Positions 93-39,671 of a stretch of DNA of 64,000 nucleotides are shown piece by piece. Source of the DNA: Maridesulfovibrio salexigens DSM 2638. Lineage in GTDB: Bacteria; Desulfobacterota; Desulfovibrionia; Desulfovibrionales; Desulfovibrionaceae. The stretch's first letter is position 1; each line of letters begins with the position of its first letter. The stretch lies in assembly GCF_000023445.1 (NCBI RefSeq), contig NC_012881.1, positions 3,861,501 to 3,925,500 of the forward strand, in the 5' to 3' direction. The notes beneath the pieces were generated by a model. It saw nothing but the letters and a program-made list of their open reading frames with translations, made no database searches and had not been told where the DNA came from. A program made the position numbers and the translations under genes.

Positions 93-109
93 CAGAGTAA
101 CCCCCTATA

Positions 110-988: not shown

Positions 989-1003
989 CAGTACCTCCCA
1001 GGA

Positions 1004-2512
1004 TTAAGCTGTGAAACCTTTATTGAACTCTTCCAGAGCGGCCTTCAGCTTGCCTTCGATTTCGTCGTCAATAGCGCCTTTAGTCTTGATGCCTTCCAGG
1101 ATTTCAGGCTTCGCGTTAGCGATGAATTCCTGGAGTTCGTCTTCGTATTTGCGTACTGCGCTAACAGGAAACTCATCCATGTAACCGCGGGTACCGGCGT
1201 ACAGGGAAACTACCTGTTCCATAACGTTCATGGGCTTGTACTGAGGCTGCTTGAGAAGCTCAACCATGCGTGCACCGCGGTTCAGCTTCTGCTGGGTGGC
1301 CTTATCGAGGTCAGAACCGAAAGCTGCGAAAGCTGCGAGTTCACGATACTGTGCGAGGTCAAGACGCAGAGTACCTGCAACCTGCTTCATAGCTTTAATC
1401 TGAGCAGCACCACCAACTCGGGATACGGACAGACCTACGTTAACAGCAGGACGGATACCGGAGTTGAAGAGGTTAGGCTCGAGGTAAACCTGACCGTCGG
1501 TAATGGAGATAACGTTGGTCGGGATATATGCGGATACGTCACCTGCCTGAGTTTCAATGATGGGCAGTGCGGTCAGAGAACCAGCGCCGAGGTCATCATT
1601 TACTTTACAAGAACGCTCGAGGAGCCTTGAGTGCAGGTAGAAAACGTCACCGGGGTATGCTTCACGTCCCGGAGGGCGACGAAGCAGGAGAGACATCTGT
1701 CTGTATGCAACAGCCTGTTTGGAAAGGTCATCGTATGCGATGAGGGCGTGCTTACCGCCGTCACGGTAGTACTCAGCCATGGTTGCACCGGTGTATGCAG
1801 AAATGAACTGCAGAGGTGCAGGCTCAGATGCAGTAGCAGAAATGATTGTGGTGTATTCCATTGCACCGTGCTTGCGCAGAATGTCAGCAACAAGAGCAAC
1901 TGCTGCTTTCTTCTGACCGATAGCTACGTAGAAGCAATGGATACCGGAATCTTTCTGAGCGAGGATAGCGTCAACGCAGATAGCGGTCTTACCAACCTGA
2001 CGGTCACCAATAACCAACTCACGCTGACCACGTCCGATAGGAGTCATTGCGTCAATAGACTTAAGACCGGTGTACATGGGCTCATGTACGGACTTACGAG
2101 CAATGATACCGGGAGCTTTAAGCTCAACGGGACGTTCTTCTTTAGCTTCAATGGGTCCGAGACCATCGATGGGCTGACCGAGGGGGTTAACAACACGCCC
2201 CATAACAGCGTCACCAACAGGTACGGAGAAGAGCTTGCCGGTACGTTTAACCGGGTCACCTTCTTTAATACCGGTATCGTCACCGAGGAGTGCAACACCG
2301 ACGTTATCTTCTTCGAGGTTGAGAACCATGCCCATCAGGCCGCCGGGGAACTCGAGGAGTTCCATAGCCATTGCGTTCTCAACACCATGAACACGAGCAA
2401 TACCGTCACCAACGTACAGTACGGTACCGGTTTCGCTCATCTCGACCTTAGACTCATAGTTCTGAATCTGATCTTCAATGATTTTGCTGATTTCTTCCGC
2501 TTTAATCTGCAT
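1004..2512 (-). CDS. atpA: ATP synthase F1 subunit alpha
   Basis: 502 residues with the ATG at 2512 ([16 protein letters not shown]). An in-frame codon 12 bases upstream overlaps the end of atpH and is less likely. Seen: the P-loop GDRQVGKT near residue 170, the [13 protein letters not shown] signature near 370, and the usual C-terminal helical domain. Alpha forms the non-catalytic nucleotide-binding subunits of the F1 hexamer. Its Shine-Dalgarno sequence (AAAAGGGG) lies inside the last codons of atpH, which implies translational coupling. Confidence 0.98.
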
Positions 2513-2516
2513 GGCC

Positions 2517-3068
2517 CTACACACCCCTTTTAATCTGTTCTTTCATCATTTGCAGCTGTGCGCGAATGCTTGCATCAAGAACTTTATCACCAACCTGAAG
2601 AACAACACCTCCGAGGATGTCTTTATCCATTGCAAAGTCGAGCTCGAGTTTGCTTTTAAGCTGTTCTTCAAGACGTGTTTTAATTTCTTTCTGACGCTTA
2701 ACGGTCAGCTTGATTGCAGTCACCAGTTTGCCACGGACGACACCCTGAACGTTGTCCAGCATTCCTGCGTAGTCGCTTGCGATCTCAGGAATAACCGGCA
2801 GACGTCCTTTGTCGGCCAGAAGGCTGCAAAAGTTTTTAACCACAGGTCCTGCCGAGGTCTTCTCAAGCAGTTTTTCGAGTACGGCTTTCTTTTCATCCGC
2901 ACTGAAAACAGGATTCTGGAAGAGCCTCAGGGCCTCCGGGGAATCTTCCAGTATCTGGGACAACTCGGTCAGTGCCAAACCATACGCCGCAAGGTCTTCT
3001 TCTCCCTGCTTCTGGCCAACGGAGAACAGCGCCTTGGCGTATCTGCGTGAGACTATGTTCCCGGTCAT
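2517..3068 (-). CDS. atpH: ATP synthase F1 subunit delta
   Basis: 183 residues ([18 protein letters not shown]). The RRYAKALF start and the C-terminal [19 protein letters not shown]-like segment with GDKVLDASI are hallmarks of OSCP/delta, the stator link between F1 and the b subunits. Its ATG overlaps the atpF stop codon as TAATG, indicating tight coupling. It ends 4 bases before atpA. Confidence 0.96.
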
Positions 3069-3637
3069 TAGAGCACCACCTTTGTTAAGTATTCATCCAC
3101 CAGAGTCTCGTGCTGAGCTTTGGTAAGCTTGCTCTTGACGATTTTCTCAGCTGCTTCGATGACTTTGTCAGCCATTTCTGCACGCATTTCGTCCAGTGCT
3201 ACATTTACTTCCTGCTCTGCGGAGACTTTGGCCTGAGCTTTGATCTGCTCGGCAGTCTGCTCGGCTTTCTGGATGATCGCCGCCTTCATGGCCTCGCCCT
3301 GAGATCTGGCTTCGGAAAGGATGGAATCCTTTTCCTGTTCCAGATTAGCAATACTTGATTCGACGTCGCGGAGCTTTTTCTCTGCAGCTTCCTTACGGGA
3401 CTGCAAATCGTTAAGCTCCTGTTTGATACCTGCCTGGCGTCCTTTAAAGAGAGAGGCGATTTTCTCGCCAGCAAACTTGTAAAGGATCCCGAGGACGAGG
3501 ATCAAGTTAAGTACACGCCAACCGAAGTTTGCCCAGGGAATCTCGTGCGCCCCTTCTCCACCGCTTGCATAGGCTGCGCCTGCTGCCAGCAGTACGGAAA
3601 GAGCGGTTGTTGCCATGATCATGTTTTTCCGCTTCAA
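3068..3637 (-). CDS. atpF: ATP synthase F0 subunit b, with signal-like leader
   Basis: 189 residues. After a hydrophobic leader ending in a cleavable-looking AYASGG (residues 1-27) comes EIPWANFGWRVLNLILVLGILYKF, the single membrane anchor. A long charged coiled coil (residues 65-180) forms the peripheral stalk. The leader plus anchor is longer than in the E. coli b subunit. The gene lies directly downstream of atpF' and is coupled to atpH. The F0 genes for a and c are not in this operon, so they must lie elsewhere. Confidence 0.93.
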   Translation of the reverse strand: MKRKNMIMATTALSVLLAAGAAYASGGEGAHEIPWANFGWRVLNLILVLGILYKFAGEKIASLFKGRQAGIKQELNDLQSRKEAAEKKLRDVESSIANLEQEKDSILSEARSQGEAMKAAIIQKAEQTAEQIKAQAKVSAEQEVNVALDEMRAEMADKVIEAAEKIVKSKLTKAQHETLVDEYLTKVVL

Positions 3638-3667
3638 GGCTAAACCCCCCTTCGATATTGATTAGGC

Positions 3668-4084
3668 CTAGCCAAGAACCTTGGCTGTAACCTTCTGAGC
3701 AAAAGCTTCAACTTCGCCACCAAGAACCTTCATTGCTGCACCTTTATCAGCTGCAACCTCCGCGCGAGCTTCCTTCATAGTCGCGGCTGCGACTTTTCCG
3801 GCCTCGGCGAGCAATGTTTGTTCCTGAGCGGCTCCCTGATCTTTGAAGTCGTTCCGGATTTCCATTCCCTCTTTACGGGCAGAGTCCAGAGCAGCTTCGT
3901 AATCCTTAACCTTGGTTTCAGCCTGTCCGTTAAAATTTTCCACCTTGGAGAGCTGATCGCTCATGAGCTCTGCGCGTCTCCTGATGATTTCACGAATAGG
4001 ACGAAACATAAGAAGGTTGAGAACAAGAAGGGTGATGATGAAGTTCGCTAACTGGATAAAAAAGCTAATATCTAAATCAATCAT
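3668..4084 (-). CDS. atpF': ATP synthase F0 subunit b'
   Basis: 138 residues: one N-terminal membrane helix (ISFFIQLANFIITLLVLNLL) followed by RPIREIIRRRAELMSDQL and an alanine/glutamate-rich coiled coil. This is the b/b' pattern. With atpF it would form a heterodimeric stalk, as in photosynthetic bacteria and many deltaproteobacteria. It is the first gene of the operon, 31 bases upstream of atpF. The call of b' rather than b rests on its order and short length. Confidence 0.9.
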   Translation of the reverse strand: MIDLDISFFIQLANFIITLLVLNLLMFRPIREIIRRRAELMSDQLSKVENFNGQAETKVKDYEAALDSARKEGMEIRNDFKDQGAAQEQTLLAEAGKVAAATMKEARAEVAADKGAAMKVLGGEVEAFAQKVTAKVLG

Positions 4085-4129
4085 GCCTGCTCCCGAAAAG
4101 GTTGTGAATTTTTGTCCAAAGTCAGTTGC

Positions 4130-4158
4130 GGTGTAGCTAAATTTAGAGCTTGTGTCAA
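4130..4158 (-). promoter_or_regulatory. Candidate sigma-70 promoter of the atp operon
   Basis: On the minus strand a perfect -35 TTGACA (4153-4158) is followed after 17 bases by TACACC (4130-4135), a weak -10. It sits 46 bases upstream of the atpF' start, in the gap after the bactofilin gene. The -35 is convincing and the -10 is not, so this is a candidate only. Confidence 0.4.
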
Positions 4159-4174
4159 AGGGTTTTTGAAAATG

Positions 4175-4196
4175 AATCGGTTACTTTTCGCCGATT
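4175..4196 (-). terminator. Possible weak terminator after the mre/bactofilin operon
   Basis: AATCGG (4175-4180) and CCGATT (4191-4196) form a 6-bp stem with a 10-base loop, followed on the minus strand by CATTTTC. An overlapping alternative stem GGTTA/TAACC competes. The fold is weak and the T tract short, so transcription may read through from the cell-shape genes into the atp operon. Confidence 0.3.
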
Positions 4197-4226
4197 AACC
4201 CCCGTCAACACTGGCTTGTTATTTTT

Positions 4227-4640
4227 TTAACTAATTTCTTCTGTTTCTGTTTCAGTTGCAGAAGAGGAGCTGGAACTCATGGTTACACGCCCTTCCAGAA
4301 CCGCACCTTCCTCCACTACCAAGGTGGGGGTGACCAGGTTACCCTGCAGGTTTGCAGTCTTATGCAGAACAGCTTTCTCAGCTGCATAAACCTCGCCTGT
4401 CACACGTCCACTGAGAACAAGCTGGCCCACACGCAAAACGCCTTCTACCTTTGCTTCGCGACCAACGACCAGAGTTCCCTCGGATTCAACTTCACCGTTG
4501 AAATTACCGTCAATACGTACAGCACCCTGAAAATTCAGCTTTCCCTGATAATCGGTTCCACTGCCTAAGAATGCATTTATTTCATCTCTTGCCATTTTTA
4601 TCTCCTTTTCCCCAGAGCCGGTTTTTGAAAAACCAAACAT
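4227..4640 (-). CDS. Bactofilin-family polymer-forming cytoskeletal protein
   Basis: 137 residues. The central part (about 25-120) is the bactofilin beta-helix, with repeating hydrophobic-glycine strands such as GKLNFQGAVRIDGNFNGEV and VLRVGQLVLSGRVTGEV. The C-terminus is a low-complexity serine/threonine/glutamate tail. Two starts are plausible: ATG 4640, just after the rodA stop with AGGGG upstream, and ATG 4595 (MARDEINAFL), preceded by a very strong AAGGAG at ideal spacing. Bactofilins polymerise without nucleotide and often act in cell shape, which suits its place as last gene of the mre-mrd operon. Confidence 0.9.
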   Translation of the reverse strand: MFGFSKTGSGEKEIKMARDEINAFLGSGTDYQGKLNFQGAVRIDGNFNGEVESEGTLVVGREAKVEGVLRVGQLVLSGRVTGEVYAAEKAVLHKTANLQGNLVTPTLVVEEGAVLEGRVTMSSSSSSATETETEEIS

Positions 4641-4645
4641 GCGGC

Positions 4646-5761
4646 TTACCCCTGTTTAAATACGTAACGTCTCATGGAAACGTTTAAAACGAGCCCCACG
4701 AGACAAAGGTTGACGACGGTACCACTGCCGCCATAACTGATGAATGGTAAAGGGATGCCTACTACCGGCATTAGTCCGAGGACCATACCCATATTGATAA
4801 GGATTTGCCAGAAGAAATAAAAGAATACGCCTGCCGCAAGATAGCTTCCGAACAGGTCTTTTGCTTCTCTGGCTGTCACAACCATTTGATACAAAAACAC
4901 ACAAAAAAGACTGAGCAGAGCCATAGCTCCGGCAAAGCCCCACTCTTCACCGAAAACAGCGATAGCGAAGTCTGTGTGCTTTTCAGGCAGAAACCGCAGC
5001 TGAGACTGCGTTCCGCCCAGAAAACCTTTACCCCAGACCCTTCCGGACCCAATGGCGATTTCCGACTGAATAATATGATAGCCCGCGCCGAGCGGATCGC
5101 TGGCCGGATTCATAAACGAGATAACCCTGCGCTTCTGATAATCATGCATGAAAAGCCAGCCCACAGGGATCAAACATGGACCTACCACAGCAAGGGTTTT
5201 GAACAGCTTGGGAGTCAGGCCCCTATAGAGAATCATCCCGCCGAGAATGAGCAGAATATTGAGCCCCGAACCGAGGTCCGGCTGGGTAATTACCATCCCT
5301 GCGGGAATAAGCCCCACCCCAACTACATAGGCTAGATTCTTAATATTCAGAGGATCGCTACTGCGGGAGAGAATTTTGGCCCCGATAACCAGAATGGTAA
5401 TCTTGGCCATTTCACTGGGCTGAAAATTAAAGAAGCCGAGATCAAGCCAGCGGCGGGCACCGTAAATGGTTTTGCCGATTACAGGTACACACGCCAACAG
5501 TATTACCGTAATCCAGAACAAAGGCCATGCTATGGTTCTTAAATGCCGGTAATCAAAAAGCATAAAAGTGATCATTCCGGCAAAGCCCATCAGTCCCCAG
5601 ATAAGCTGTTTCTGATAAAATGAGCTGACGCTCATTCCCTGCTCCAGCCTGAATCCGCTGGCAGAATAAAGGTTGAGAACTCCGACAAAAAACAGCATTG
5701 CCGCCAGTCCCAGCAGGAACCAGTTCATATGAATAAGTAATCTGCGGTCAATGGGAGACAT
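4646..5761 (-). CDS. rodA: Rod-shape peptidoglycan glycosyltransferase RodA
   Basis: 371 residues with about ten hydrophobic segments; SEDS family. Seen: the FQPSEMAKI motif near residue 115, the GAGYHIIQSEIAIGSGRVWGKGFLGGTQSQL loop with FLPEKHTDFAIAVFGEE near 225-275, and the C-terminal GIPLPFISYGGSG motif. RodA polymerises glycan for the elongasome together with the class B PBP encoded just upstream. Its ATG overlaps the mrdA stop (TAATG). Confidence 0.96.
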   Translation of the reverse strand: MSPIDRRLLIHMNWFLLGLAAMLFFVGVLNLYSASGFRLEQGMSVSSFYQKQLIWGLMGFAGMITFMLFDYRHLRTIAWPLFWITVILLACVPVIGKTIYGARRWLDLGFFNFQPSEMAKITILVIGAKILSRSSDPLNIKNLAYVVGVGLIPAGMVITQPDLGSGLNILLILGGMILYRGLTPKLFKTLAVVGPCLIPVGWLFMHDYQKRRVISFMNPASDPLGAGYHIIQSEIAIGSGRVWGKGFLGGTQSQLRFLPEKHTDFAIAVFGEEWGFAGAMALLSLFCVFLYQMVVTAREAKDLFGSYLAAGVFFYFFWQILINMGMVLGLMPVVGIPLPFISYGGSGTVVNLCLVGLVLNVSMRRYVFKQG

Positions 5762-7557
5762 TATTTCTTACCCTTATTGCCTTTGAAAATATAATCATAG
5801 ATAGCTTTGACTATCGGACCGGCCCCGGAACCGCCATGCAAACCGTGTTCAACCATGCAGACAACCACGTAACGCTGGTCTCCTTTTTCTGCAAAACTGG
5901 CCATCCACGCGTGGTCCCTATACTTATAAGGAATATCTTCATCCTTCATTTTCTTAAGCTCATCAGTGAGCTTAACCACCTGAGCAGTACCGGTTTTACC
6001 GCCGACAACAACCCCTTTCGTACGCAGTCTGCGAGCGGTCCCTCGAGGTTTATCTACTGTGGCGATCATGGCCTTGCGGATTAATTCACGTTGACTGTCT
6101 GTGAGCGGAATCACGCCCTGCTCTTCAGCAGGTTCTCCTGCTAGAAGCTGCGGCCTGAGCAATCTGCCACCATTAATCAGTGAAGAAATAGAGCGGGCCA
6201 CCTGCAAGGGAGTTACCAGAGTATATCCCTGTCCAATGGAAAAGTTCAGGTTTTCACCGGGATGCCATATTTCACCGAATCTGCGTTTTTTCCACTTACG
6301 GGTCGGGATCAATCCGCCCTTTTCATGTGGCAGCGCAATTCCGGTGGGCTTGCCGTAACCTGCAGCAAAAGCAAATTCACTCATCCGGTCTACGCCGAGT
6401 TTTTTGCCTAATTTGTAGTAATAAACGTCACAGGATTCGACTAAAGACTTTTCAAGGTCGGTTTCCCCGTGTCCGCCTCTTTTCCAGCAACGGAACACAT
6501 ATTTTCCGAGCTTCATATGACCGGGGCAATAAACCGTATCTTCAGGCGTAATCATCCCGTAATGCAAACCGGCCCCGGCAACAGTCATCTTGAAGACTGA
6601 TCCCGGAGGATACACGGACTGGATAACCCGGTTTTGCAGCGGAGTTCTGGGGTCATCGCGCAATGCGACCCACTGTTTCTGGCTCAAGCCGTCAGTGAAG
6701 GCATTGTTGTCGTAGGATGGAGCACTGACGAAAGCCAGAATCTGGCCGTTATCAGGGTTCATGACCACTACAGCCCCGGCCTTGCCTTCAAGCAGCTTTC
6801 CGCCAAGTTCCTGCAAACCGAGATCAATGGAAAGATCTATATCCTCCCCGGCTATGGGAGGATTAAGAATACGCTCTTTTAACCTTCGACCTGTGGCATC
6901 AACTTCACTCTGCCTGCGGCCTTTGACGCCCCGAAATCTTTTTTCCAGAACAGATTCGAGACCTTGCTTCCCAACGTAGTCACCCACAGCGAGATCGGAA
7001 TCATTTTCTAACTCAGCTTCGTCAACTTCGGAAACATATCCCAAAACATGCGAAAGAAGGGGACCTTGAAGATATTTACGGCGGGGACGGACCACAACCT
7101 CAAGTCCGGGCCAATGCAACGAGTTGGCCTCGATGACTGCTACCTGTTCAAAGGTGAGGTTGGGGACTAGGATCAAGGGCTCAAAAGGTTTGACCCTGCG
7201 CCGGGACTTCTTGAATACTTTTTGCAGCTTCGCAAGATCGACCCCTGTCCACTTTGATACGGTCACCAAGGTGGCATCCAGGTCCTTGCAGTCCTCACGG
7301 ACAATTCCCAAAGCGTAGGCGGGCTCGTTGACAGCCAGGAGCTGTCCGTTACGGTCTCTGATCAAACCGCGCGGGGCATAGAGATTATCCTGACGCAACT
7401 GGTTATTACGAGCCTGCTCGGAAAAATATTCGCCCTTATGAATCTGCAAATACCAGAAACGCAGGGCAAAAATACAAAACAGGAGCAATATAAGCCCCTG
7501 CAAGAGCAACAGTCCGTTCTTGGGAGGTTGCTGGCTTTTAGATTCATACAGGCTCAT
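5761..7557 (-). CDS. mrdA: Penicillin-binding protein 2 (elongasome transpeptidase)
   Basis: 598 residues. An N-terminal membrane anchor (about 15-37) is followed by the PBP dimerisation domain (RGLIRDRNGQLLAVN) and the transpeptidase. Active-site motifs are all visible: SVFK (PPGSVFKMTVAG), SCD of the SxN/D motif, and KTGTAQV. It cross-links side-wall peptidoglycan in concert with RodA. It overlaps mreD by 14 bases and rodA by a few bases, so the operon is tightly coupled. Confidence 0.97.
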   Translation of the reverse strand: MSLYESKSQQPPKNGLLLLQGLILLLFCIFALRFWYLQIHKGEYFSEQARNNQLRQDNLYAPRGLIRDRNGQLLAVNEPAYALGIVREDCKDLDATLVTVSKWTGVDLAKLQKVFKKSRRRVKPFEPLILVPNLTFEQVAVIEANSLHWPGLEVVVRPRRKYLQGPLLSHVLGYVSEVDEAELENDSDLAVGDYVGKQGLESVLEKRFRGVKGRRQSEVDATGRRLKERILNPPIAGEDIDLSIDLGLQELGGKLLEGKAGAVVVMNPDNGQILAFVSAPSYDNNAFTDGLSQKQWVALRDDPRTPLQNRVIQSVYPPGSVFKMTVAGAGLHYGMITPEDTVYCPGHMKLGKYVFRCWKRGGHGETDLEKSLVESCDVYYYKLGKKLGVDRMSEFAFAAGYGKPTGIALPHEKGGLIPTRKWKKRRFGEIWHPGENLNFSIGQGYTLVTPLQVARSISSLINGGRLLRPQLLAGEPAEEQGVIPLTDSQRELIRKAMIATVDKPRGTARRLRTKGVVVGGKTGTAQVVKLTDELKKMKDEDIPYKYRDHAWMASFAEKGDQRYVVVCMVEHGLHGGSGAGPIVKAIYDYIFKGNKGKK

Positions 7558-8005
7558 GTCTAAACCTTTGCGGATAAATGTATTTCAGCAGGAGCCATTC
7601 AACAGGGAAAATTGCGGCTTGCAGGATTCCTTCAAAGATATAGCGGTCCTGCACCCAGATCATATCTGCAAGCATGGACATCATCGCAGTCAGCGCGGGA
7701 TGCAAGGCTCCGAGCACAACTCCGCAGAGAAGAGCGAACATCATTGACTGCACATCAAAAAACATTGCTCCACAACGGTACAATACAAGTATTGAGGAAT
7801 ACCAGAGAACGGAATAACCAAAGGGAAGACCGCCAATTCCGTCCTGAATAAGAGACCAGATCAGAATAAGCCAGACAATATGATATTTCTTTTCCAGCTG
7901 GATGCAGAGCAGCAATCCCGGAGCAAGGAAATCCACTCCCGGCACAATTTTCTGTACCCAGATTGCGACAAAGCTGAAACAGGCCCACCAAAAAGCGGAA
8001 TACAT
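7544..8005 (-). CDS. mreD: Rod shape-determining protein MreD
   Basis: 153 residues, strongly hydrophobic with about five membrane segments, the size and profile of MreD. The sequence diverges strongly in this family, so the call rests on position between mreC (3-base gap) and mrdA (overlap), plus the pattern VWLILIWSLIQDGIGGLPFG typical of MreD loops. It is thought to help anchor MreC and PBP2 in the inner membrane. Confidence 0.85.
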   Translation of the reverse strand: MYSAFWWACFSFVAIWVQKIVPGVDFLAPGLLLCIQLEKKYHIVWLILIWSLIQDGIGGLPFGYSVLWYSSILVLYRCGAMFFDVQSMMFALLCGVVLGALHPALTAMMSMLADMIWVQDRYIFEGILQAAIFPVEWLLLKYIYPQRFRHEPV

Positions 8006-8008
8006 GGC

Positions 8009-8899
8009 CTACCTCCCTTCAGCTGTGGTGGAATTTCCGGTACCGGCTGTGGAATTGGCATTTCCGATGGGGGTGTTGGTATCAGGAACAGCCCTGTGCA
8101 ACAAAAGCACCTCTTCGGTATTCTCCATATCCACCAAAGGAATAGCTTCCACATTAAGAAAAAGCGAAATATCAGAACGCTCAACAGAAATGATCTTGGC
8201 GACAGGAAGTCCCGCGGGGAATAAACCGGCAAGGCCGGAAGTGACCAGAATTTCCCCTTCTGTAACCGGGGCATTGATCTTCATATACTTTACACTCAAA
8301 GACTCGCCCTCGCCGTTTCCGACCAGAAGACCGGTGGAGCGATGGATCTGACCGCGAACAGAAATCCTGCTGTTCAAGTCGGTCAGCAGCAAAGCCTTTG
8401 AAGCACTGAGCCCCGGTTCCACTACCCGGCCTACGACCCCGAGAGGGGTTATCACCGGAGTATCTGGATCGACACCCGAAACTACACCTTTATTGATGAT
8501 GATTGAATCAAGGGCTGCAGAAGGTCCCATGCGCTGGGCGATGATCCGGGCTCCGTCTGTTTTCCAGTTGTGAACCGGCTTGATCGCAAGCAATTTTTGA
8601 TAACGCTCGGCCTCAGCTGCCTTTTCACGCAGCTTCATAATCTCAAGGCGCATCAAATCATTCTGGGAGCTGAGCTGATCATTGAGCTGCTTCAGGCCCA
8701 CGAGATAAATATACTTTTCCCAGAACTCAACCGACTGGTCATGCACATATTCACAGGGCCACAGAACCCATTTGACGATTTCAAGACCGGTAAACCCGGC
8801 GAGACGGTCCAGCTGTCCGGACCTCAGATTCCATGAATAAAGGCTGAGGTAGACAAACAGGCCAATAATGACGGCTATAGCGGCGCGCTTAAGCTTCAC
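8009..8899 (-). CDS. mreC: Rod shape-determining protein MreC
   Basis: 296 residues. One N-terminal membrane helix (about 7-24), then a coiled coil (LKQLNDQLSSQNDLMRLEIMKLREKAAEAERY) and the periplasmic beta domain with IINKGVVSGVDPDTPVI, GVVGRV and DLNSRISV motifs typical of MreC. The C-terminal tail (GNANSTAGTGNSTTAEGR) is low complexity. MreC scaffolds PBP2/RodA activation in the periplasm. A 220-base gap to mreB is unusual for this operon. Confidence 0.95.
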   Translation of the reverse strand: MKLKRAAIAVIIGLFVYLSLYSWNLRSGQLDRLAGFTGLEIVKWVLWPCEYVHDQSVEFWEKYIYLVGLKQLNDQLSSQNDLMRLEIMKLREKAAEAERYQKLLAIKPVHNWKTDGARIIAQRMGPSAALDSIIINKGVVSGVDPDTPVITPLGVVGRVVEPGLSASKALLLTDLNSRISVRGQIHRSTGLLVGNGEGESLSVKYMKINAPVTEGEILVTSGLAGLFPAGLPVAKIISVERSDISLFLNVEAIPLVDMENTEEVLLLHRAVPDTNTPIGNANSTAGTGNSTTAEGR

Positions 8900-9119
8900 A
8901 CTTAATCCTCTGTAATTGCGAGCAGAGATTAAAAAACAAATAGAAAAAAGCTATAACCAGAAAGACGAAAGACCGGACTGAGAAAATTGAAATCAATCTC
9001 AAATCCGGGTGCGTTTAATTTCTGAGGACATAGCTTTTTGCAGACTAAATCCGCAAAAAACTATGCCCTCAGCCGTAACTGGTGCACTCGATTCCATCCG
9101 CGGCAAAAGGAGCGGACAA
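8900..9119. other. Gap between mreB and mreC without a recognisable gene
   Basis: A 220-base spacer inside an otherwise tightly packed operon. AGCTTTTTGCAG (from 9031) and the nearby CTGAGGACATAGCTTTTTG / AAAAACTATGCCCTCAG form an inverted repeat (about 9022-9071) that could fold as a hairpin after mreB. This could reduce downstream expression relative to MreB. No ORF with a ribosome binding site was found. Confidence 0.5.
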
Positions 9120-10202
<1,083 letters not shown>

Positions 10203-12382: not shown

Positions 12383-13567
12383 CTAGTCGAACACAGCATC
12401 ATAAGCCTGCAACAACTTGGGTTCTTCGTACTTCCACTCCAGTTCGTTCCTTACTCTGCGATATCCCAATGCGCCCATTTTCTCCCTTATATCCGGAGAA
12501 TCCAGCAATTGTAAGATCTTATCGCCCATATCCTTATAATCATTCGGCGCAGCGTAGAGAGAGGCCCCCTGCGCGGAAAAACGCCCCTCAGTCAAATCAA
12601 ACTGGACTATGGGTTTCCCAAGGGCCATGTATTCCATAATTTTATTCATTGTGGATTTGTCATTCATTTCATTCGCCCGGTCAGGATTCACACAGATGTC
12701 GGCAGTATTGAGCATTTCCAGCAGTTCCTGATCAGGAACTCGGCCGGTAAAGGTGACGTAATCGGATACCCGCAATTCCTCTGCCAGAACCTTCATTTCC
12801 TCAAGAGAGGTGCCGCCTCCCACAAGACCGAAATGGATATCATGACGGCCCAAGTCATGAACTATATACTGGACCGCTTGTAAAAGAAGATCGAGCCCTT
12901 CCTGTTTACCCATTACTCCCACATAGCCCACGAGATAGGTTCGACCTTTCTTGAGCGAATCGACAGGAGGGAGAAACTTTAAGCGGTCCAGCTTGGGACC
13001 GCTGCGTACCACATAAACTTTCTCAGGGTCCATCTTTCCCCGTTCAATGGCGATACATTTATATGACTCATTGGTGGCAATAGAAATATCCGCAGCCATG
13101 AAGGTTGCCCTTTCAAGCCAGACCATAAGCTTCCAGAAAAAGTCACGCCTGTTAAACTTGGCTTCATATAATTCGGGATTGATATCGTGATGATCAAAAA
13201 TAAATTTGGTTTTATAGAGCAATTTGAAAACGAGCCCGACCAGAAAAAGCAGATCCGGCGGATTGCAGGCATGGATAACATCAAAGCCCTGCTCGCGGCG
13301 AACCTTCCAAGCCAGCCTGAAGGTATGCCATAAAGCCGCGCTGTACTCCACTGCATATCCCTTTGCTCCTTCACCTTCCAAGGGCAGATCATAGCGGTAG
13401 ATATGAACACCTTCTATTTCTTCATAATATTTTTCATAGCCCTTACCCGTTGGGCATATGATGGAGACATGGTACCCTGCGCTGCGCAGAGATGTAGCTT
13501 CCTGCCATACCCGGCGGTCAAAGGGGGAAGGTAAATTTTCAACGAGAATCAAAATTTTTCGGGACAC
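12383..13567 (-). CDS. Glycosyltransferase family 4
   Basis: 394 residues from GTG 13567 (MSRKILILVENLPSPFDRRVW), with GCGGAG six bases upstream. The longer upstream frame overlaps algD and is not used. GT-B fold: N-terminal acceptor half with VIHACNPPDLL, C-terminal donor half with GYVGVMGKQEGLDLLL, VGGGTSLEEM and NPDRANEMNDKSTMNKIMEYMALGKPIV, typical of WbuB-like family 4 enzymes. Last gene of a three-gene minus-strand unit with AlgD and the heparinase-like protein, so it probably assembles a secreted polysaccharide. Donor and acceptor are unknown. Confidence 0.92.
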   Translation of the reverse strand: MSRKILILVENLPSPFDRRVWQEATSLRSAGYHVSIICPTGKGYEKYYEEIEGVHIYRYDLPLEGEGAKGYAVEYSAALWHTFRLAWKVRREQGFDVIHACNPPDLLFLVGLVFKLLYKTKFIFDHHDINPELYEAKFNRRDFFWKLMVWLERATFMAADISIATNESYKCIAIERGKMDPEKVYVVRSGPKLDRLKFLPPVDSLKKGRTYLVGYVGVMGKQEGLDLLLQAVQYIVHDLGRHDIHFGLVGGGTSLEEMKVLAEELRVSDYVTFTGRVPDQELLEMLNTADICVNPDRANEMNDKSTMNKIMEYMALGKPIVQFDLTEGRFSAQGASLYAAPNDYKDMGDKILQLLDSPDIREKMGALGYRRVRNELEWKYEEPKLLQAYDAVFD

Positions 13568-13598
13568 AATGATCTCCGCATTTCTTAAACTATCATCT

Positions 13599-14912
13599 TT
13601 ACCAGCAAATGCCGTCAATATGCTCATTTTCCAATGAGGAATCATCAAACCGAACCAGATCGACAACAACCTGACCGGGACGGATTTTGGATTGCAGGTC
13701 TTTGAATTCAGGAGAATTATTACCCACGACAATGGTCTCTGCAAAATCCAGCACACTTTCCATATCTGAGACCATAAGCTTTGAAATATGCGGAATGCGA
13801 TTCATGATGTAATCCCGGTTTGCTCCTAAAAGCTTGGCTGCATTAACATTACGATCATACAACTTAAGCTCGAACCCTTTCCCGATAAGCTGTTCGATGA
13901 CTTCCACCAGCGGGCTCTCCCTCAAATCGTCAGTCCCGGCTTTGAAACTGAATCCAAGAAAACCAACCTTTCTATTACCCTTGCCCATGATCATGGACAG
14001 CCCTCTTTCAATATGCCGTCTATTACTGCGCAAGACATTGTTTAAAAGAGGCAAATCCAAACTCAATTGATTAGCCTTGTAGGTCAGGGCGCGCACATCT
14101 TTAGGCAGGCAGGAACCACCAAAAGCAAATCCCGGTTTCATATAGTAGCTGGAAATATTAAGCTTGGTATCCTTGCAGAAAATATTCATAACCTTGTGAC
14201 TGTCTATGCCGACTTCTTTACATATGGCACCGATTTCATTTGCAAAAGCCACTTTGACCGCATGCCAGTTGTTATCGGCATACTTTACCATTTCAGAAAC
14301 TTCCATTTCAGTCCTGATCAGCGGCGCATCAATATTTTCATAAAGTGAAGCAAGGATATCCCCGCTTTTCGAGTCGCTTTCCCCGATAACCGTTTTAGGA
14401 GGGTTGTAGAAATCATGAACAGAGCTGCCTTCGCGCAGGAACTCGGGGTTATTGCACACGCCGAAGTCAACACCAGCGACCTTTCCGGAAGCTGCTTCCA
14501 ACGCGGGAATAACCAATGAACGCATGGACCCCGGCAGAATGGTGCTGCGAATGACAACTACATGAAATTCATCCTTATTCTTTAGAACAACACCGATCTC
14601 CTCACAAACACGGCGGACATAGCTTAAATCCAGACTACCGTTAAATTGACTCGGAGTTCCTACACAAACAAAGGAAATTTCAGATGAGAGGATAGCTTCT
14701 TCAGCAGAAGTGCTTGCCGTCAAAGAACCATCCTGCACAGCCTGCTGGAGAATATCGCCGATAAGGTCTTCAATGATGGGAGTCTGACCGGAATTGATCA
14801 TGTCGACTTTAACCTGATTCGGATCAACGCCGACAACCTCATGCCCCTCTTTGGCTAAGCAACCGGCAGAGACTGTCCCGACATACCCTAATCCAAATAC
14901 ACTAACCTTCAT
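13599..14912 (-). CDS. algD: GDP-mannose 6-dehydrogenase-like nucleotide-sugar dehydrogenase
   Basis: 437 residues, almost exactly the length of Pseudomonas AlgD. Rossmann motif VFGLGYVGTVSAGCLAKEGH, the binding helix YADNNWHAVKVAFANEIGA, and the catalytic-cysteine loop KPGFAFGGSCLPKDVRAL (Cys near residue 270) are AlgD-like; UDP-glucose dehydrogenases differ in the NNWHA region. The product would be GDP-mannuronate, the alginate precursor. It lies between the heparinase-like gene (8-base gap) and a glycosyltransferase. The substrate assignment is by motif similarity only. Confidence 0.88.
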   Translation of the reverse strand: MKVSVFGLGYVGTVSAGCLAKEGHEVVGVDPNQVKVDMINSGQTPIIEDLIGDILQQAVQDGSLTASTSAEEAILSSEISFVCVGTPSQFNGSLDLSYVRRVCEEIGVVLKNKDEFHVVVIRSTILPGSMRSLVIPALEAASGKVAGVDFGVCNNPEFLREGSSVHDFYNPPKTVIGESDSKSGDILASLYENIDAPLIRTEMEVSEMVKYADNNWHAVKVAFANEIGAICKEVGIDSHKVMNIFCKDTKLNISSYYMKPGFAFGGSCLPKDVRALTYKANQLSLDLPLLNNVLRSNRRHIERGLSMIMGKGNRKVGFLGFSFKAGTDDLRESPLVEVIEQLIGKGFELKLYDRNVNAAKLLGANRDYIMNRIPHISKLMVSDMESVLDFAETIVVGNNSPEFKDLQSKIRPGQVVVDLVRFDDSSLENEHIDGICW

Positions 14913-14920
14913 TTCCGCCT

Positions 14921-16918
14921 CTACTTAAAAGTATATTTTAAAACCGTTAAAAACTGACTCTTACCTTCAATCTTCCCCGCCCAGACTATCGTTGGGGACG
15001 GGACTTTGAAGTCAAATCTCCTTGAAATCCAGCCCAACGAAAAATCCTCACTACCTTGAACTACCACCGGTTCCATATCTGCGTCAGGCATAGACATTTC
15101 AAGGCAAGCTTTCGGTGTATTTATAAATACACTCTTTCCACTGATTTCTACAGAGCATGATTCTGAAACATGCCAGAACATTTCAATTTCATGTTTTTGC
15201 TCACAATCAAATTCATCACATACTTCAATAATTCCAGACTCTTTTTCAAATTTGACACTGCGGGAATGAATAACAGGATCGGCAAAACGGGTATAGCCAT
15301 CATGAGACCCTCTGAAAGAATCCTGTTCCGCTGAGACCTCAAATGACTCACACCAAGCCTTGGCATGTTTTGTCCATAAAAAATTACCGCCTGAGACAGA
15401 CTGATCCTGACGGTCAATACGGACCGTGTTGTGAGCGGATGTTCCTTTAAAGTAATCGCGCCATTTCCGTTCGGTATGGTAGGCATACGTTCCCGGGTCA
15501 ATTAGTATTTCCTCCCCGCCGAGAGACAAAACCATTGCGAGGGCATCGGCATGTCCATGTGCCGCAATTGAGGTATATCCCAGAGGTCCGGCATCAATGA
15601 TAACCTTCACTTCCCTATCTGTTTCGAAATCCTTCCCGAGAACGTAATATCCTCCATCAGGAAACTCCCTTCGAAACCCAGTGCAATCATTTTGCGGAAC
15701 AGCCAGTAACTCGGCAAAATCAGACTCGCCATCTTGACCTAGAAGCCAACGACTTTTGTCATCAAAAAAACCGGCCTTCTGCGCAAAATCAACTCGCTTA
15801 AAAAGCACTGCCCCGGTTGCAAGCAGTGATTGGTAAACGGAAAATTCTTCGTCCGGGACAAAGCGGACCATTACCGCATCATCAGAATCACCGATCATGG
15901 GCACAGACATCTCTGCATTCGCCATAGCTCCGATGAATTCAATCATAGATTCAAGACGATCCCAGTAATCTTTTGAAAAATCGACTCCGTTTGTACGACC
16001 CACAAGAGCACAAAGCAAAAGCATATCCGCGACTTCATGATGGTACCAGATTCCCTGTTCCCGATTACATCCATCAGTGAAATTCTGTTTCAGAGCCTCC
16101 GCTTCAAGCCCCGCTTTTGCCTTCTCCTGCCAATTAGAACTCTCTTTCCAGCAAGGCCATACGGTCGCAGCTACAAAAAGCCCCATATATTCACCCAGCA
16201 GGTGGTTGTTGGCAGATGAATAGCGCGAATAATAGCCATTGATAAAATGGCAGTGCTTATAAATAGATTTCAACCAACGTTCTCTGAATGCTTTCCCGTC
16301 ACTCCCTGCAAAAAGGAAAGAATCCTCTCCTCCCAGAAAATGCCATGTAAAAGACCAGTTTATCAGCCGCACAGCAAGTTCAAGAGAACTTGTCCAATTG
16401 GGTCCATATAAATAGGGACACTGCTCAAACCACGAATTCAACATTTCTTTGCAGGCATGGGCATATTTTTTATCGCCGGACAACATATATGCCTGCGCAA
16501 GGGTCACCAATTCCAAATGGCGATTAGGTTCCCAAAGATATTTGATATTACCGACATTAGACTCATCGCGGTAATTCAGCTTTTTCCCGAAAACCAAGGG
16601 CGCTGAAGTTCCGGTCAAAGGATCCTTGTTCCAGTTCGGAGGAAAGGCGAGGTGACAATCCCGCAGAGCAAAAATATTAAAATTTCCAGTGAGAATTCTG
16701 TCTGCATTCCTCAGATAGGTTCCAGCATCAGGCAGGTCTAAATCGACTTCAAGCACAGGACAGCTTTTCCCTGAAGCATCATCCGGCTCTGCAATGAAAA
16801 GTCCTCGTGACTGCGCCTCTGTCAGACAAGCCATGCGTACCCGATAGAGCACTTCAGTAACACTCATCCGTTTAAGACGGGCAATCAGCCAACCGAACCT
16901 CTTGATATTCAAAACCAT
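14921..16918 (-). CDS. Heparinase II/III family protein (polysaccharide lyase-like)
   Basis: 665 residues from ATG 16918, placed right after AGGTGG; a GTG six bases earlier is possible. The N-terminal half is an alpha/alpha toroid with YRVRMACLTEAQSRG, WEPNRHLELVTLAQAY and NNHLLGEYMGLFVAA segments. The C-terminal heparinase II/III domain carries HGHADALAMVLSLGGEEILIDPGTYAY and the FKGTSAHNTV motif with candidate catalytic His/Tyr residues. Such proteins are found in exopolysaccharide clusters, where they trim or degrade uronate polymers. No signal peptide is obvious. First gene of the unit with algD. Confidence 0.9.
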   Translation of the reverse strand: MVLNIKRFGWLIARLKRMSVTEVLYRVRMACLTEAQSRGLFIAEPDDASGKSCPVLEVDLDLPDAGTYLRNADRILTGNFNIFALRDCHLAFPPNWNKDPLTGTSAPLVFGKKLNYRDESNVGNIKYLWEPNRHLELVTLAQAYMLSGDKKYAHACKEMLNSWFEQCPYLYGPNWTSSLELAVRLINWSFTWHFLGGEDSFLFAGSDGKAFRERWLKSIYKHCHFINGYYSRYSSANNHLLGEYMGLFVAATVWPCWKESSNWQEKAKAGLEAEALKQNFTDGCNREQGIWYHHEVADMLLLCALVGRTNGVDFSKDYWDRLESMIEFIGAMANAEMSVPMIGDSDDAVMVRFVPDEEFSVYQSLLATGAVLFKRVDFAQKAGFFDDKSRWLLGQDGESDFAELLAVPQNDCTGFRREFPDGGYYVLGKDFETDREVKVIIDAGPLGYTSIAAHGHADALAMVLSLGGEEILIDPGTYAYHTERKWRDYFKGTSAHNTVRIDRQDQSVSGGNFLWTKHAKAWCESFEVSAEQDSFRGSHDGYTRFADPVIHSRSVKFEKESGIIEVCDEFDCEQKHEIEMFWHVSESCSVEISGKSVFINTPKACLEMSMPDADMEPVVVQGSEDFSLGWISRRFDFKVPSPTIVWAGKIEGKSQFLTVLKYTFK

Positions 16919-34581: not shown

Positions 34582-36858
34582 TTATCTTGAATATTTAATC
34601 AGAAGCTTCTCAACATCACCAATCTGTGTGGGTTTGGACAAATAGTCATTTATACCCGAAGCAAGAAAATCTTCTTTATCCCCTGCCATGGCGTATGCGG
34701 TGCATGCTATGATTGGAATCTCTTTAGCAGCCTCTCCACCCTCTCCGCCACGGATCCGGTGAGCGGCTTCAAGCCCACCCATTTTCGGCATCTGGATATC
34801 CAGAAAAATCAAATCAAACTTTATTTCCCCAGCACCCAGAATATTTATAACTTCACAGCCGTCACTAGCAACAGAGACATTACATCCATATTGCTCCAGA
34901 AAACTCTTAAGCGTAAGCAGGTTTACCTTTTCATCTTCGGCAACAAGAACCTCAAATTCCTTAATAGAATTTTTATCCCAAAGAGGAAGTTTTTCATCTG
35001 CAACGGAACGTTGCTCAGCAGCTTCAAAATCCAAAGAAAAACAAATCGATGTTCCAACATTAATCTCACTGCTTATGGAAAGAGTTCCACCCATCAATTC
35101 CAAAAGCTGCTTTACAATAGCAAGGCCTAAACCTGCTCCCTCATAATTTCGAGTTCTGCTGGTCTCTATCTGAGTAAATGAATTAAAAATTGAATCGAGC
35201 TTACTGTCCTCAATCCCGATTCCTGAATCCGAAACAGAAAACAAAATGTGATAACTACCATTCTGATTACGATCCAGAAGATATGCTTCCACTAAAACGA
35301 ACCCTGAATCGGTGAACTTCAAAGCATTACCAATCAAATTATTAAATATCTGATGCAGACGATTAATATCGCCAATCATTGTTTTCGGAACATTCCCTGC
35401 AATCTCAACACGCAGATCAATATTTTTCTGGATGGCTGCCGGCTTAAAAAGTGCCTGAACAGAATTCAAAGCATTATGTAGATCAAATTCAGCATCAACT
35501 ATTTGCAAATGCCCGGATTCAATTCTTGTAATATCAAGTATGTCGCCCAAAAGTTTATTTAAGCGCTTACAAGATTCCATTGCGAATCCGCATTGCTCTT
35601 CCTGCTTCTGATTCATTTCGCCCATGCGCATCAATTGCAGCATGCCCATAATTCCATTTAAGGGAGTTCGGATTTCATGAGACATATTTGCCAGAAACTC
35701 CGACTTTGCAATATTTGCTGATTCAGCTTCCAGCTTGGCTGCAATGAGTCTTTCCTCTGATTTTTTACGTTCCAGAACCAAGGCAACGTTTTTACTGAAC
35801 AAAGAAAGGATATCAATATCCTCTTCGGACCACTTCCGATGCTCAAGCACTGAATCAAAGCCGACAAACCCGACAAGCTGATCATAGAAATAGATGGGTT
35901 CAATAAGCACAGACCATATATCTTGAACTTGGAGGATAGCTTTATCCGGTAAGTCATCAGGGAGCGCTGATACATCGGGGATGTAATAAGATTCTCTTTT
36001 ACAAAGAGTTTCCCAAAGAAGGGAACCGGACTCTACTAAATCTATATTCTGTAATTCCTGAATTTGCGGTTCTATGTTTTCTGCGCACCACTCATGGGTA
36101 TTATCGCAAATAGAACTGTTGCCCCGCATAAGAAATATATAGGCTCTACCCACTCCGGTAAAAAGGCATATCTTTTTTAAAGCCTCTGTGAGCCCTCTAT
36201 CGATATCTCCCACAGATAAATTTAGAAAATCAGAGGCAACATTACTGACCAGATTTTCAAAAACGATACGTCTGGAAAGTAAATTTTCAGCTTCTTTCCT
36301 TTTAGTAATATTAAGTACGGTAAAAGAGACTCCTTTTGACCAGTCATTGCAGTCCAGAGGTTTTGAACTCAAAATGACATGTATGATTTTACCGTCTTTT
36401 CGTTGGAATCTAGTCTCAACTGAACCGATCCCTTTCTCTCTTATCTGGGCATATTTATATTTACTGACTAAATCAAAATCAGCATCGCTGGGATAAACAA
36501 CACGTGAGGATTTCCCGATCAATTCTTCTCTGGAATAACCTGTCATTTCGCATAAGAAGTCATTCACTTCCTGAAAAATACGATCAACAACGACCCCTAT
36601 CCCTATGGGGGCTGCAGACAAAACGGTTTGCAGCTGAACATCACGTGCTTCTAGAATTTCCTTTACCTTTCGCTGCTTATGAAGAAACAAAGTATAAGAA
36701 TAGAAAGCACACCCCGTCATAGCTCCAAAAATCAATGGAACCAAAAAGGACTGCGGTACTAAAGGCCAACCCATTAAATACTTATGGGTAGCGGAAAGCA
36801 GACATAAGACTGCAGCACCGCAAATGGCCGCTAAGATTAAGCGAAATAGAAACAACAT
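34582..36858 (-). CDS. Hybrid sensor histidine kinase (PAS-GAF-HisKA-HATPase-REC)
   Basis: 758 residues. Two N-terminal membrane helices (about 5-22 and 35-55), PAS (about 80-195), GAF (about 205-365), HisKA with [11 protein letters not shown], ATPase with [19 protein letters not shown] and [12 protein letters not shown], and a C-terminal receiver (640-755) with phospho-acceptor in [14 protein letters not shown] full phosphorelay start with an attached receiver but no output domain, so a phosphotransfer protein elsewhere is expected. It is divergent from the inserted NTPase gene. Confidence 0.95.
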
Positions 36859-36956: not shown

Positions 36957-37025
36957 CCAAAAAAACTAAAGCCCCGGTACAAACGTACCGGGGCTTTCAT
37001 GTATCCAGATTTCAACTGTGTGCGC
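36957..37025. repeat. 69-bp direct repeat, left copy (duplicated lepB terminator)
   Basis: Matches 39000-39068 at 67 of 69 positions by eye. It contains the stem AAAGCCCCGGTAC-AAAC-GTACCGGGGCTTT, a perfect 13-bp hairpin, then CATGTATCCAGATTTCAACTG. The two copies are 2043 bases apart and bracket the KAP-like NTPase gene. Here the hairpin lies between divergent promoters, where a terminator has no obvious use. Its right end falls in a 14-bp palindrome TGTGTGCGCACACA (37017-37030). Confidence 0.92.
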
Positions 37026-37099
37026 ACACACTTCCTTGAAGAATAGAGTCTCCGTATGTTACCTGAAATGCAAAATAAATATAAAGACGGAGGTCTAGC

Positions 37100-38980
37100 A
37101 TGCCGAACCAACATATCAAAGAATATTTGGACTACTACATACAATCGAAAAATCCCGAACATGCAGTCATGATTAATGGAGCGTGGGGTTCAGGGAAAAC
37201 GTGGTTTATCAAAGACTATGTAGATAACTACGAACAGCCGGAAGACGAAATCAAATTCGTTCACGTCAGTCTGTACGGCCTGAAGACAACAGAAGACATA
37301 GATAACGAAATTTTTCGGCAAGCTTTTCCTGTTTTGTCTTCCAAGCCCATGGTTATTGGTAAGGCCGTTGCCAAGGGATTTATACGAGGTTTTCTGAAAA
37401 TTGATTTGGATGGTGATAAACAAAATGATTTGCAATTTGATTTGAAAGAAATGGAAGGAGCATTCAGCAGCAAAGATCTAAGTTTAGATAATCTTATTTT
37501 GATATTTGATGATGTGGAACGGACATCGATTAATACGATTGAATTGCTGGGGTATATTAATAACTTTGTTGAGATTCAAAATTATAAAGCGGTGCTATTA
37601 TGCAATGAAGAAGCATTAAGAACTAAATTTGATAAAGATGAAAACCCCAATTCAACGTACAAATACCAAGAAATTATAGAAAAATTAATCGGCACTACAT
37701 TTTATATCATCTCCTCTCATTCTGAAGCCATTAAATATTTCATCAATGAAATTGAAGATTCACAAAGTAAAGTAATCTGTGAAAACAATATAAGAGTAAT
37801 AGAGAAAATTTTTTGCGAATCAGAGCATAAAAATCTTAGAGACATAAAGCGAAGCCTGTGGGGATACACCCGTTTAATGAACACTCTATGCAAAAACGAA
37901 AGAATTAAACACAACACTGAATTTCAATCACATATACTTGCCTTATTCATTATATATAGTCTTGAAAATAGAAATGAAAATTTTAAAATTGACAACATGG
38001 GTCCAATGTTTGCTGATATGAAACATGAATATTGGAATGAGGAGACTAAAATTAAACTTCATAAATATTCATCAATCAATGCAATAGATCCCTGCGTCCC
38101 ATTTGGTGTTTGGAGACACCTTCTCCTTTCAGAAGATTACCTTAGCAACGATGAGATAATTAAAAATTGCTTAACTTCTTCATACTTTGATGGAGCCAAA
38201 ACCCCTTTATGGAAAAAAATATATTTATACCACACCTTAGAAGAAGAGGAGTTTGCCAAGCTGCTAAAGATGGGTGAAGTAAAATTTAAGGCTAAAGACT
38301 TTGAAAACCACCAAGAACTTCTACATACCTTCGGAATATTTTTAAACTTAACACGAATAGGCTTCACACAGATCGGCGAGGATGAACTATTCAAATTGTC
38401 AAAAGAATACATTCAAAAAATCGCTGCGGAATATGTCTTACCCACTCCTACTAGCATCTTTGACAGTTACCAATTCATCAAAGAATTCGAAGAATATGAC
38501 AATTACGCATTCCAAAATCACGACGACCCAAAGTTCAAAAAATTAACTCATCTTATCAGCGATTTAAGACAAGAGAACATAGACAGTTTCTATGATAAAA
38601 AAGCAGAGCACTTACTAAGGACCCTCTCAAGAGATAGAGCTCTTTTCTGTAGGCAAATAGCATGTGATGATGTTGCAATTTCAATGCAAAGAGACAAAAC
38701 ACTACAGCACGTCAACATTGACGACTTTATAAATAAATTTTGTAAATTAAAAAACATTGAAAAACCACAGATTGTAAAAGCATTCTACACCCGTTACAAC
38801 GTAGAAAACGTCACAGAACTATATACTGAAACAACATGGCTTACCAAACTTAACAACAAGATAAAAACGAAAGCGACTAAATGTAGAGGTAAAATAGCTC
38901 ATATTCATTTAAAAGATTTTTCTAAAACACTTGATAATATTCTAAAAAGACTAAACGAAACCACAAATAAAATAGAGTAG
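37100..38980 (+). CDS. KAP-like P-loop NTPase, probable horizontally acquired gene
   Basis: 626 residues with strong GGAGG before the ATG. Walker A GAWGSGKT (27-34) and Walker B ILIFDDVE (133-140) are KAP/STAND-type features. The remaining 450 residues are predicted mostly helical, with no known domain recognised. No transmembrane pair of classical KAP proteins is seen. Codon use is clearly more AT-rich than in all neighbours. Single-gene cassette between direct repeats. Many KAP-like NTPases lie in phage-defence islands, so defence is a reasonable guess but not shown. Confidence 0.82.
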   Translation: MPNQHIKEYLDYYIQSKNPEHAVMINGAWGSGKTWFIKDYVDNYEQPEDEIKFVHVSLYGLKTTEDIDNEIFRQAFPVLSSKPMVIGKAVAKGFIRGFLKIDLDGDKQNDLQFDLKEMEGAFSSKDLSLDNLILIFDDVERTSINTIELLGYINNFVEIQNYKAVLLCNEEALRTKFDKDENPNSTYKYQEIIEKLIGTTFYIISSHSEAIKYFINEIEDSQSKVICENNIRVIEKIFCESEHKNLRDIKRSLWGYTRLMNTLCKNERIKHNTEFQSHILALFIIYSLENRNENFKIDNMGPMFADMKHEYWNEETKIKLHKYSSINAIDPCVPFGVWRHLLLSEDYLSNDEIIKNCLTSSYFDGAKTPLWKKIYLYHTLEEEEFAKLLKMGEVKFKAKDFENHQELLHTFGIFLNLTRIGFTQIGEDELFKLSKEYIQKIAAEYVLPTPTSIFDSYQFIKEFEEYDNYAFQNHDDPKFKKLTHLISDLRQENIDSFYDKKAEHLLRTLSRDRALFCRQIACDDVAISMQRDKTLQHVNIDDFINKFCKLKNIEKPQIVKAFYTRYNVENVTELYTETTWLTKLNNKIKTKATKCRGKIAHIHLKDFSKTLDNILKRLNETTNKIE

Positions 38981-38999
38981 ACTCCAACAATCCAGAATC

Positions 39000-39068
39000 C
39001 CAAAAAAACTAAAGCCCCGGAACAAATGTACCGGGGCTTTCATGTATCCAGATTTCAACTGTGTGCGC
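39000..39068. repeat. 69-bp direct repeat, right copy and lepB terminator
   Basis: Adjacent to the lepB stop codon, so this is probably the ancestral copy. Stem AAAGCCCCGG...CCGGGGCTTT, followed on the minus strand by TAGTTTTTTTGG, acts as the lepB terminator and would also end transcripts of the convergent NTPase gene. Two differences from the left copy (A for T, T for C in the loop region) break the inner part of the stem. Confidence 0.92.
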
Positions 39069-39671
39069 TTAGTGCAGGATGTCACCAATGCGATCCCAGC
39101 GAACGGTCTTGGGACCGCCCCAAGACCAGTAGATAATCCACGCCTTTCCTAAGATGTTCTCTCTGGGAACGTTGCCCCAGAATCTGGAATCGTTGGATCC
39201 ATCGCGGTTGTCGCCCATTACGAAGTATTCGTTTTCGGGAATTACCCGGGGCGGCATATTGTCGCGCAGTGTTGAAACGTGGGTGGTATCGGTGTACTGC
39301 ACGTAAGGCTCAACAAGCTCCTTACCGTTAACGAAGACCTTCTTGTTCTTGATCTCCACAGTATCACCGGGTACGCCGATAACCCTTTTAATGTAATCCT
39401 TGCTGGGGTCCCCGGGGTATTTGAAGACAATGATGTCCTGATACTCGGGATCGCCCACCGGCACGACAACCTTCCCGGTAAAGGGAACTTTCACGCCGTA
39501 GGAAAATTTGCTTACCAGCAGATGGTCTCCGATCTGGAGAGTCTGCAACATGGAACCGGACGGAATCTTGAAGGCCTGCACGATAAAGGTTCGGATAAAA
39601 AGAGCCAATATGAGTGCGATAAAAAGAGCTTCAACATATTCCTTCACAGTGCTCTGCCATCTGGGATTCAT
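39069..39671 (-). CDS. lepB: Signal peptidase I
   Basis: 200 residues. One N-terminal membrane helix (about 11-33), the catalytic serine in IPSGSML (Ser40), the catalytic lysine in YIKRVIG (Lys95), and the box GDNRDGSNDSRFWG. Cleaves Sec and Tat signal peptides at the outer face of the inner membrane. Downstream of lepA by 76 bases, the usual lepA-lepB order. Confidence 0.97.
   Translation of the reverse strand: MNPRWQSTVKEYVEALFIALILALFIRTFIVQAFKIPSGSMLQTLQIGDHLLVSKFSYGVKVPFTGKVVVPVGDPEYQDIIVFKYPGDPSKDYIKRVIGVPGDTVEIKNKKVFVNGKELVEPYVQYTDTTHVSTLRDNMPPRVIPENEYFVMGDNRDGSNDSRFWGNVPRENILGKAWIIYWSWGGPKTVRWDRIGDILH

What the first reader, a model, noticed from the sequence alone, without database searches (positions are those of the whole stretch)
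36957..39068. KAP-like NTPase cassette inserted at lepB with duplication of its terminator
A 1.9-kb AT-rich gene for a P-loop NTPase (Walker A GAWGSGKT, Walker B ILIFDDVE) is flanked by 69-bp direct repeats, 67 identical by eye. The right copy is the lepB terminator; the left copy lies uselessly between divergent promoters. This is what acquisition at a terminator with target duplication, or recombination between terminators, would leave. Single-gene KAP-like NTPases in such places are often phage-defence genes.
Basis: partly seen in the sequence, partly recalled or inferred. Interest (0 to 1): 0.7.

Follow-up and report, generated by a model that had tools for sequence, protein, structure and literature searches.

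The report
Single-gene defence cassette at lepB terminator
A lone gene for a probable anti-phage ATPase was inserted right behind the lepB gene of this bacterium, duplicating lepB's 69-base transcription terminator on either side; relatives show the same spot empty with one terminator.

Summary
A 626-aa KAP NTPase gene (37100-38980, 33.5% GC) lies between two 69-bp direct repeats, 67/69 identical; the right one starts at the base next to lepB's stop codon and is its terminator. The duplication is unique to this genome: among 348 genomes of the order, six congeners carry the terminator once and only this one twice. Four congeners show lepB-terminator-histidine kinase, a clean empty site. The only same-family KAP genes in the genus (two species, 37-39% identical against 86-87% for LepB) sit elsewhere, behind a glycosyltransferase gene; in one of them the 3' end of that gene is also duplicated, about 62 bp, decayed. 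So this is at least the second independent acquisition in the genus. The protein matches PADLOC candidate PDC-S49 over its full length (481 bits), and E. coli relatives lie in the published P2 prophage defence hotspot. Defence is therefore likely but untested. No integrase lies in the cassette; how it was inserted (recombinase in trans, homologous or illegitimate recombination, long target duplication) is not settled. A well-documented new member of a known kind; the recurring long duplications at gene ends are the unusual part.

The parts
34582..36858 (-). PAS-GAF histidine kinase with receiver domain; neighbour beyond the left repeat; directly follows lepB and one terminator in empty-site congeners
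   Evidence: Pfam; empty sites L005-L008
36957..37025 (-). left copy of the 69-bp lepB-terminator repeat; its hairpin GTACGTTTGTAC is the form seen in three congeners
37026..38999 (+). inserted DNA between the repeats: 74-bp leader, KAP gene, 19-bp tail; no integrase or transposase
37100..38980 (+). KAP-family P-loop NTPase, 626 aa, PADLOC candidate defence family PDC-S49
   Evidence: structure model m8739fed8fe63
39000..39068 (-). right copy of the repeat: functional position of the lepB terminator; two private changes in the hairpin
39069..39671 (-). lepB, signal peptidase I (target gene)
   Evidence: Pfam Peptidase_S26

Best explanation
A single-gene cassette encoding a PDC-S49-type KAP NTPase was acquired horizontally and inserted at the junction of lepB and its terminator, leaving the host's 69-bp terminator duplicated on both sides (shown by the empty sites). 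lepB keeps a terminator and the downstream kinase keeps its original upstream flank, so the insertion damages nothing obvious. The protein most likely defends against phages: an AAA+/KAP NTPase module (residues 1 to about 290) that probably oligomerises and binds nucleic acid or a phage component, coupled to an all-helical C-terminal half that senses or acts (inferred, not shown). The duplicate sequence carries bases specific to this species, so it was copied from this species' own lepB terminator or that of a very close strain (inferred from the alignment).
For: Empty sites with one terminator in G003, G004, G008 and G010 in front of the kinase, and in G011 in front of the next gene; two copies only in G000 of 348 genomes. 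KAP absent from 14 of 16 congeners; the other two are 37-39% identical against 86-87% for LepB and sit elsewhere. Base composition far from neighbours. PDC-S49 481 bits over residues 2-622; homologues in viral contigs and, in E. [quoted passage not shown] Model pLDDT 86; NTPase half resembles TnsC, ORC, MuB and RdrA. QatA, another KAP defence protein, is reported to bind DNA and form heptamers or octamers (PMC13279940). Both copies share CGCACACA and TTTTTTTGG, which vary between congeners.
Against: No phage assay. Fold matches of the NTPase half are generic AAA+ (Foldseek TM 0.2-0.3) and the C-terminal half has no significant match. No second strain of this species was available to show polymorphism.
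Confidence: 0.78

Rival explanations
1. The cassette is a minimal cis-mobilisable element: attL and attR (the repeats) recognised by a tyrosine recombinase supplied in trans, its own integrase having been lost or never present.
For: Insertion at a gene end with restoration of the target, as with integrase elements; CIMEs (attL/attR kept, integrase lost) are described (PMC5704250); the genome has 11 Phage_integrase hits and a second KAP gene right beside one.
Against: No terminator-like attP in 2.9 million viral contigs (exact pattern) and no second copy in other genomes. The repeat matches over 69 bp including species-specific flanks, more than an att core needs. KAP orientation relative to the target gene differs between this case and G015.
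Confidence: 0.3
2. Homologous or homology-facilitated illegitimate recombination: incoming DNA from a very close strain anchored at the lepB/terminator end and joined illegitimately at the other side, or a circle integrated by one crossover in the terminator.
For: Both copies carry the same species-specific flanks; the right copy, not the left, has private changes; needs no recombinase.
Against: Does not explain how the first such arrangement formed, nor the second case with a similar duplication length in G015 (about 62 bp).
Confidence: 0.4
3. The gene is ancestral and was lost from the other species by recombination between the repeats.
For: Recombination between direct repeats would restore exactly one copy.
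Against: Requires loss at this site in every examined congener that has this terminator; only 2 of 16 congeners have any PDC-S49 KAP, at another site; deviant composition.
Confidence: 0.05
4. The KAP protein has a housekeeping or plasmid/replication role rather than phage defence.
For: KAP and ORC/TnsC-like AAA+ folds serve many roles; PDC-S49 is only a candidate family and no paper in the library names it.
Against: Sporadic distribution, full-length PDC-S49 match, presence in prophages and in the P2 defence hotspot.
Confidence: 0.15

Closest known systems
PADLOC candidate defence family PDC-S49
   Same: full-length match, single-gene organisation
   Different: the family is a computational candidate; its E. 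coli members lie in P2-like prophages, this one is a lone cassette at a chromosomal terminator
Tmn and QatA (KAP-family NTPases of defence systems)
   Same: KAP NTPase domain
   Different: Tmn has transmembrane segments (PMC11846954), this protein has none by hydropathy; QatA works in the four-gene qatABCD system (PMC13279940), this gene is alone; PDC-S49 was the only PADLOC family matched at E up to 1
CIME (cis-mobilisable element)
   Same: no integrase, flanked by direct repeats at a gene end
   Different: only one gene; the repeats are not proven att sites; mobility not shown

Membership tests
KAP family of P-loop NTPases (PF07693) | Pfam gathering score reached over the NTPase domain | tested here: met
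   78.9 bits, cut-off 20, residues 5-252
KAP family of P-loop NTPases (PF07693) | Walker A and DD-type Walker B motifs | tested here: met
   GAWGSGKT at 27, LILIFDDVER at 132; W29, G30, G32, K33, D137, D138, E140, R141 invariant in 62 sequences
PDC-S49 (PADLOC) | full-length profile match | tested here: met
   480.8 bits, residues 2-622 of profile 5-620/624
PDC-S49 (PADLOC) | anti-phage activity | not testable with these tools
   needs a plaque assay
Tmn | transmembrane segments in the KAP protein | tested here: not met
   highest 19-residue hydropathy 1.03
qatABCD | QatB, QatC and QatD genes alongside | tested here: not met
   neighbours are a histidine kinase and lepB
CIME | flanking direct repeats and no integrase in the element | tested here: met
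CIME | repeats act as attL/attR | tested here: inconclusive
   no matching attP in viral contigs and no integrase found at lepB

The most novel reading that the evidence does not exclude
Single-gene KAP cassettes without an integrase enter at the 3' ends of genes by a so far undescribed route that leaves a 60-70-bp duplication of the host sequence: seen here at lepB (69 bp) and, independently, at a glycosyltransferase gene in a congener (about 62 bp, decayed).
Probability: 0.1. Interest if true: 0.65.

Novelty: new member of a known kind. Interest (0 to 1): 0.38.

Why it matters
It is a clean case (occupied and empty sites in one genus) of a lone candidate defence gene entering a housekeeping locus without obvious cost to it. 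It makes two open points testable: whether PDC-S49 proteins block phages, and how single defence genes without their own recombinase move between chromosomes.

Tried and rejected
Dispersed-repeat explanation: the 69-mer occurs only twice. Regulatory RNA: only sub-threshold Rfam matches. General rule that PDC-S49 genes are repeat-flanked: of 74 loci only 6 had flanking repeats above control, in-locus control 11 of 644 intervals (Fisher p about 0.02 without the window). One of the six is an array of long repeats (L099), one resembles a dispersed repeat (L134), one is partly masked and overlaps tRNA sequence (L130), so the excess is weak. Other Desulfovibrionales homologues have no flanking repeats. 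attP search in viral contigs: none. In the second KAP locus of this genome no duplicated target was found within 15 kb. C-terminal half: no significant PDB match.

Full report
What is there. The window holds a 626-aa KAP NTPase gene (37100-38980, +) between 69-bp direct repeats at 36957-37025 (left) and 39000-39068 (right), 67 of 69 identical, 2,043 bp apart. The right repeat begins with the base after the lepB stop codon and forms the lepB terminator: a hairpin followed by AGTTTTTTT on the lepB strand. The pair is the only direct repeat of 30 nt or more within 6 kb in the window. A 400-kb sample of the same chromosome gave only repeats that I read as lying within tandem or paralogous genes. 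The gene has 33.5% GC against about 50% for lepB and lepA; the adjacent kinase gene is also AT-rich, 40%. The genome is a single contig of 4,289,847 bases; from memory this is the size of Desulfovibrio (Maridesulfovibrio) salexigens DSM 2638, which I could not check.

The empty site. LepB was located in 16 congeners and the DNA behind it read. In G003, G004, G008 and G010 lepB is followed by one terminator of the same sequence type and then the same histidine kinase gene; in G011 by one terminator and the next gene of the row. A pattern search of 348 genomes of the order found the terminator once in each of six congeners and twice only here. The right copy keeps the lepB side of the empty site and the left copy keeps the kinase side at about the same distance, as an insertion with duplication requires. 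The hairpin of the left copy has the form found in three congeners; the right copy has two private changes that weaken the hairpin from -26.5 to -21.8 kcal/mol. Bases around the terminator that differ between species (CGCACACA before it, TTTTTTTGG after it) are the same in both copies. The duplicate was therefore most likely made from this species' own terminator or that of a very close strain, not imported from a distant host.

Acquisition, not loss. Only two congeners, G015 and G006, have a PDC-S49 KAP gene, 37-39% identical to this one although LepB is 86-87% identical. Both sit in another neighbourhood, 13 to 26 kb from lepB, near a TatD gene. In G015 the gene lies between a WecG/TagA-like glycosyltransferase gene and a GNAT gene (named by eye from the sequences), and the 3' end of the glycosyltransferase gene is repeated behind the KAP gene: about 62 bp, alignment score 30 against a shuffle maximum of 16. 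G014 shows the glycosyltransferase-GNAT junction without KAP. The G015 glycosyltransferase has lost its usual stop and gained a 10-residue tail at the junction. G006 lacks the glycosyltransferase gene and has only a weak trace of the repeat (score 17 against a shuffle maximum of 14). So the genus shows two separate insertions of single KAP genes at gene ends, both with duplicated host sequence of similar length. Two cases do not make a rule.

How common is this. Among 74 KAP loci (this genus and other genomes), six have flanking direct repeats above a cross-pair control; in-locus control intervals gave 11 of 644, Fisher p 0.017 leaving out the window. Three of the six are doubtful (array, dispersed repeat, masked tRNA region), so this is a hint only. 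Homologues in other Desulfovibrionales have none.

What the protein does. It matches PADLOC PDC-S49 models over the full length (481 bits) and no other PADLOC family at E up to 1. Homologues occur in 37 viral contigs, and a close relative of one of these in 45 of 5,426 E. coli genomes. In the two E. coli loci read, the gene lies in P2-like prophages in the segment before the portal gene; in strain SFE8 this is between the replication endonuclease and portal genes, beside a SIR2 gene. That segment is a published hotspot of anti-phage systems (PMC9122126; also PMC9519451). An AlphaFold model from 62 sequences (mean pLDDT 86) has an AAA+ NTPase half whose best aligned structures are TnsC, ORC, MuB and RdrA (Z 13-15, about 220-270 residues, 5-6 A), and an all-helical C-terminal half with no significant match. 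There is no transmembrane segment by hydropathy. KAP proteins are already known in defence: Tmn (PMC11846954) and QatA, reported to bind DNA and to form heptamers or octamers (PMC13279940). I infer an oligomeric NTPase that engages phage DNA or a phage product and acts through the helical half. The effector step is unknown.

How it got in. Three routes fit: a recombinase acting in trans on the repeats (a minimal CIME), homologous or homology-facilitated recombination from a close strain, or an insertion with a long target duplication. Against a conventional attP: no such sequence in viral contigs, and the identity covers flanks that no integrase would need conserved. For recombination: the species-specific flanks in both copies. 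The opposite orientation of KAP relative to its target gene in the two cases speaks against one integrase with one polarised site. I favour recombination from a close strain for the present state, with the first formation unexplained.

Verdict. Observation confirmed, interpretation supported, defence likely but untested, insertion route open. A new member of a known kind.

Noticed in passing
L258 (same chromosome, 3010001-3030000): 14312-15997 and 12825-14042: A second, distant KAP protein (561 aa, weaker PDC-S49 match) is encoded directly beside a tyrosine integrase and behind an AI-2E-type transporter gene; a type I methyltransferase gene lies further on.
   Followed up: partly
L099 (Wenyingzhuangia gilva contig), 1-9273: Seven to eight copies of a repeat of about 224 nt separate mostly single ORFs, one of them a PDC-S49 KAP gene: an integron-like cassette array.
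   Followed up: partly
window 37017-37030: The left junction falls inside a perfect 14-bp palindrome TGTGTGCGCACACA, part from the repeat and part from the inserted DNA; the right junction lacks it.
   Followed up: no
L005 and L007, directly after lepB: Two congeners carry about 45 and 75 extra bases between the lepB stop codon and its terminator, the same point where the KAP cassette boundary lies here; possible scars of other insertions.
   Followed up: no
window 34582-36858 and L004: The histidine kinase gene next to the cassette is AT-rich and missing at this place in G011, where lepB and its terminator are followed by the next gene (TPR protein): it may itself be an insertion.
   Followed up: no
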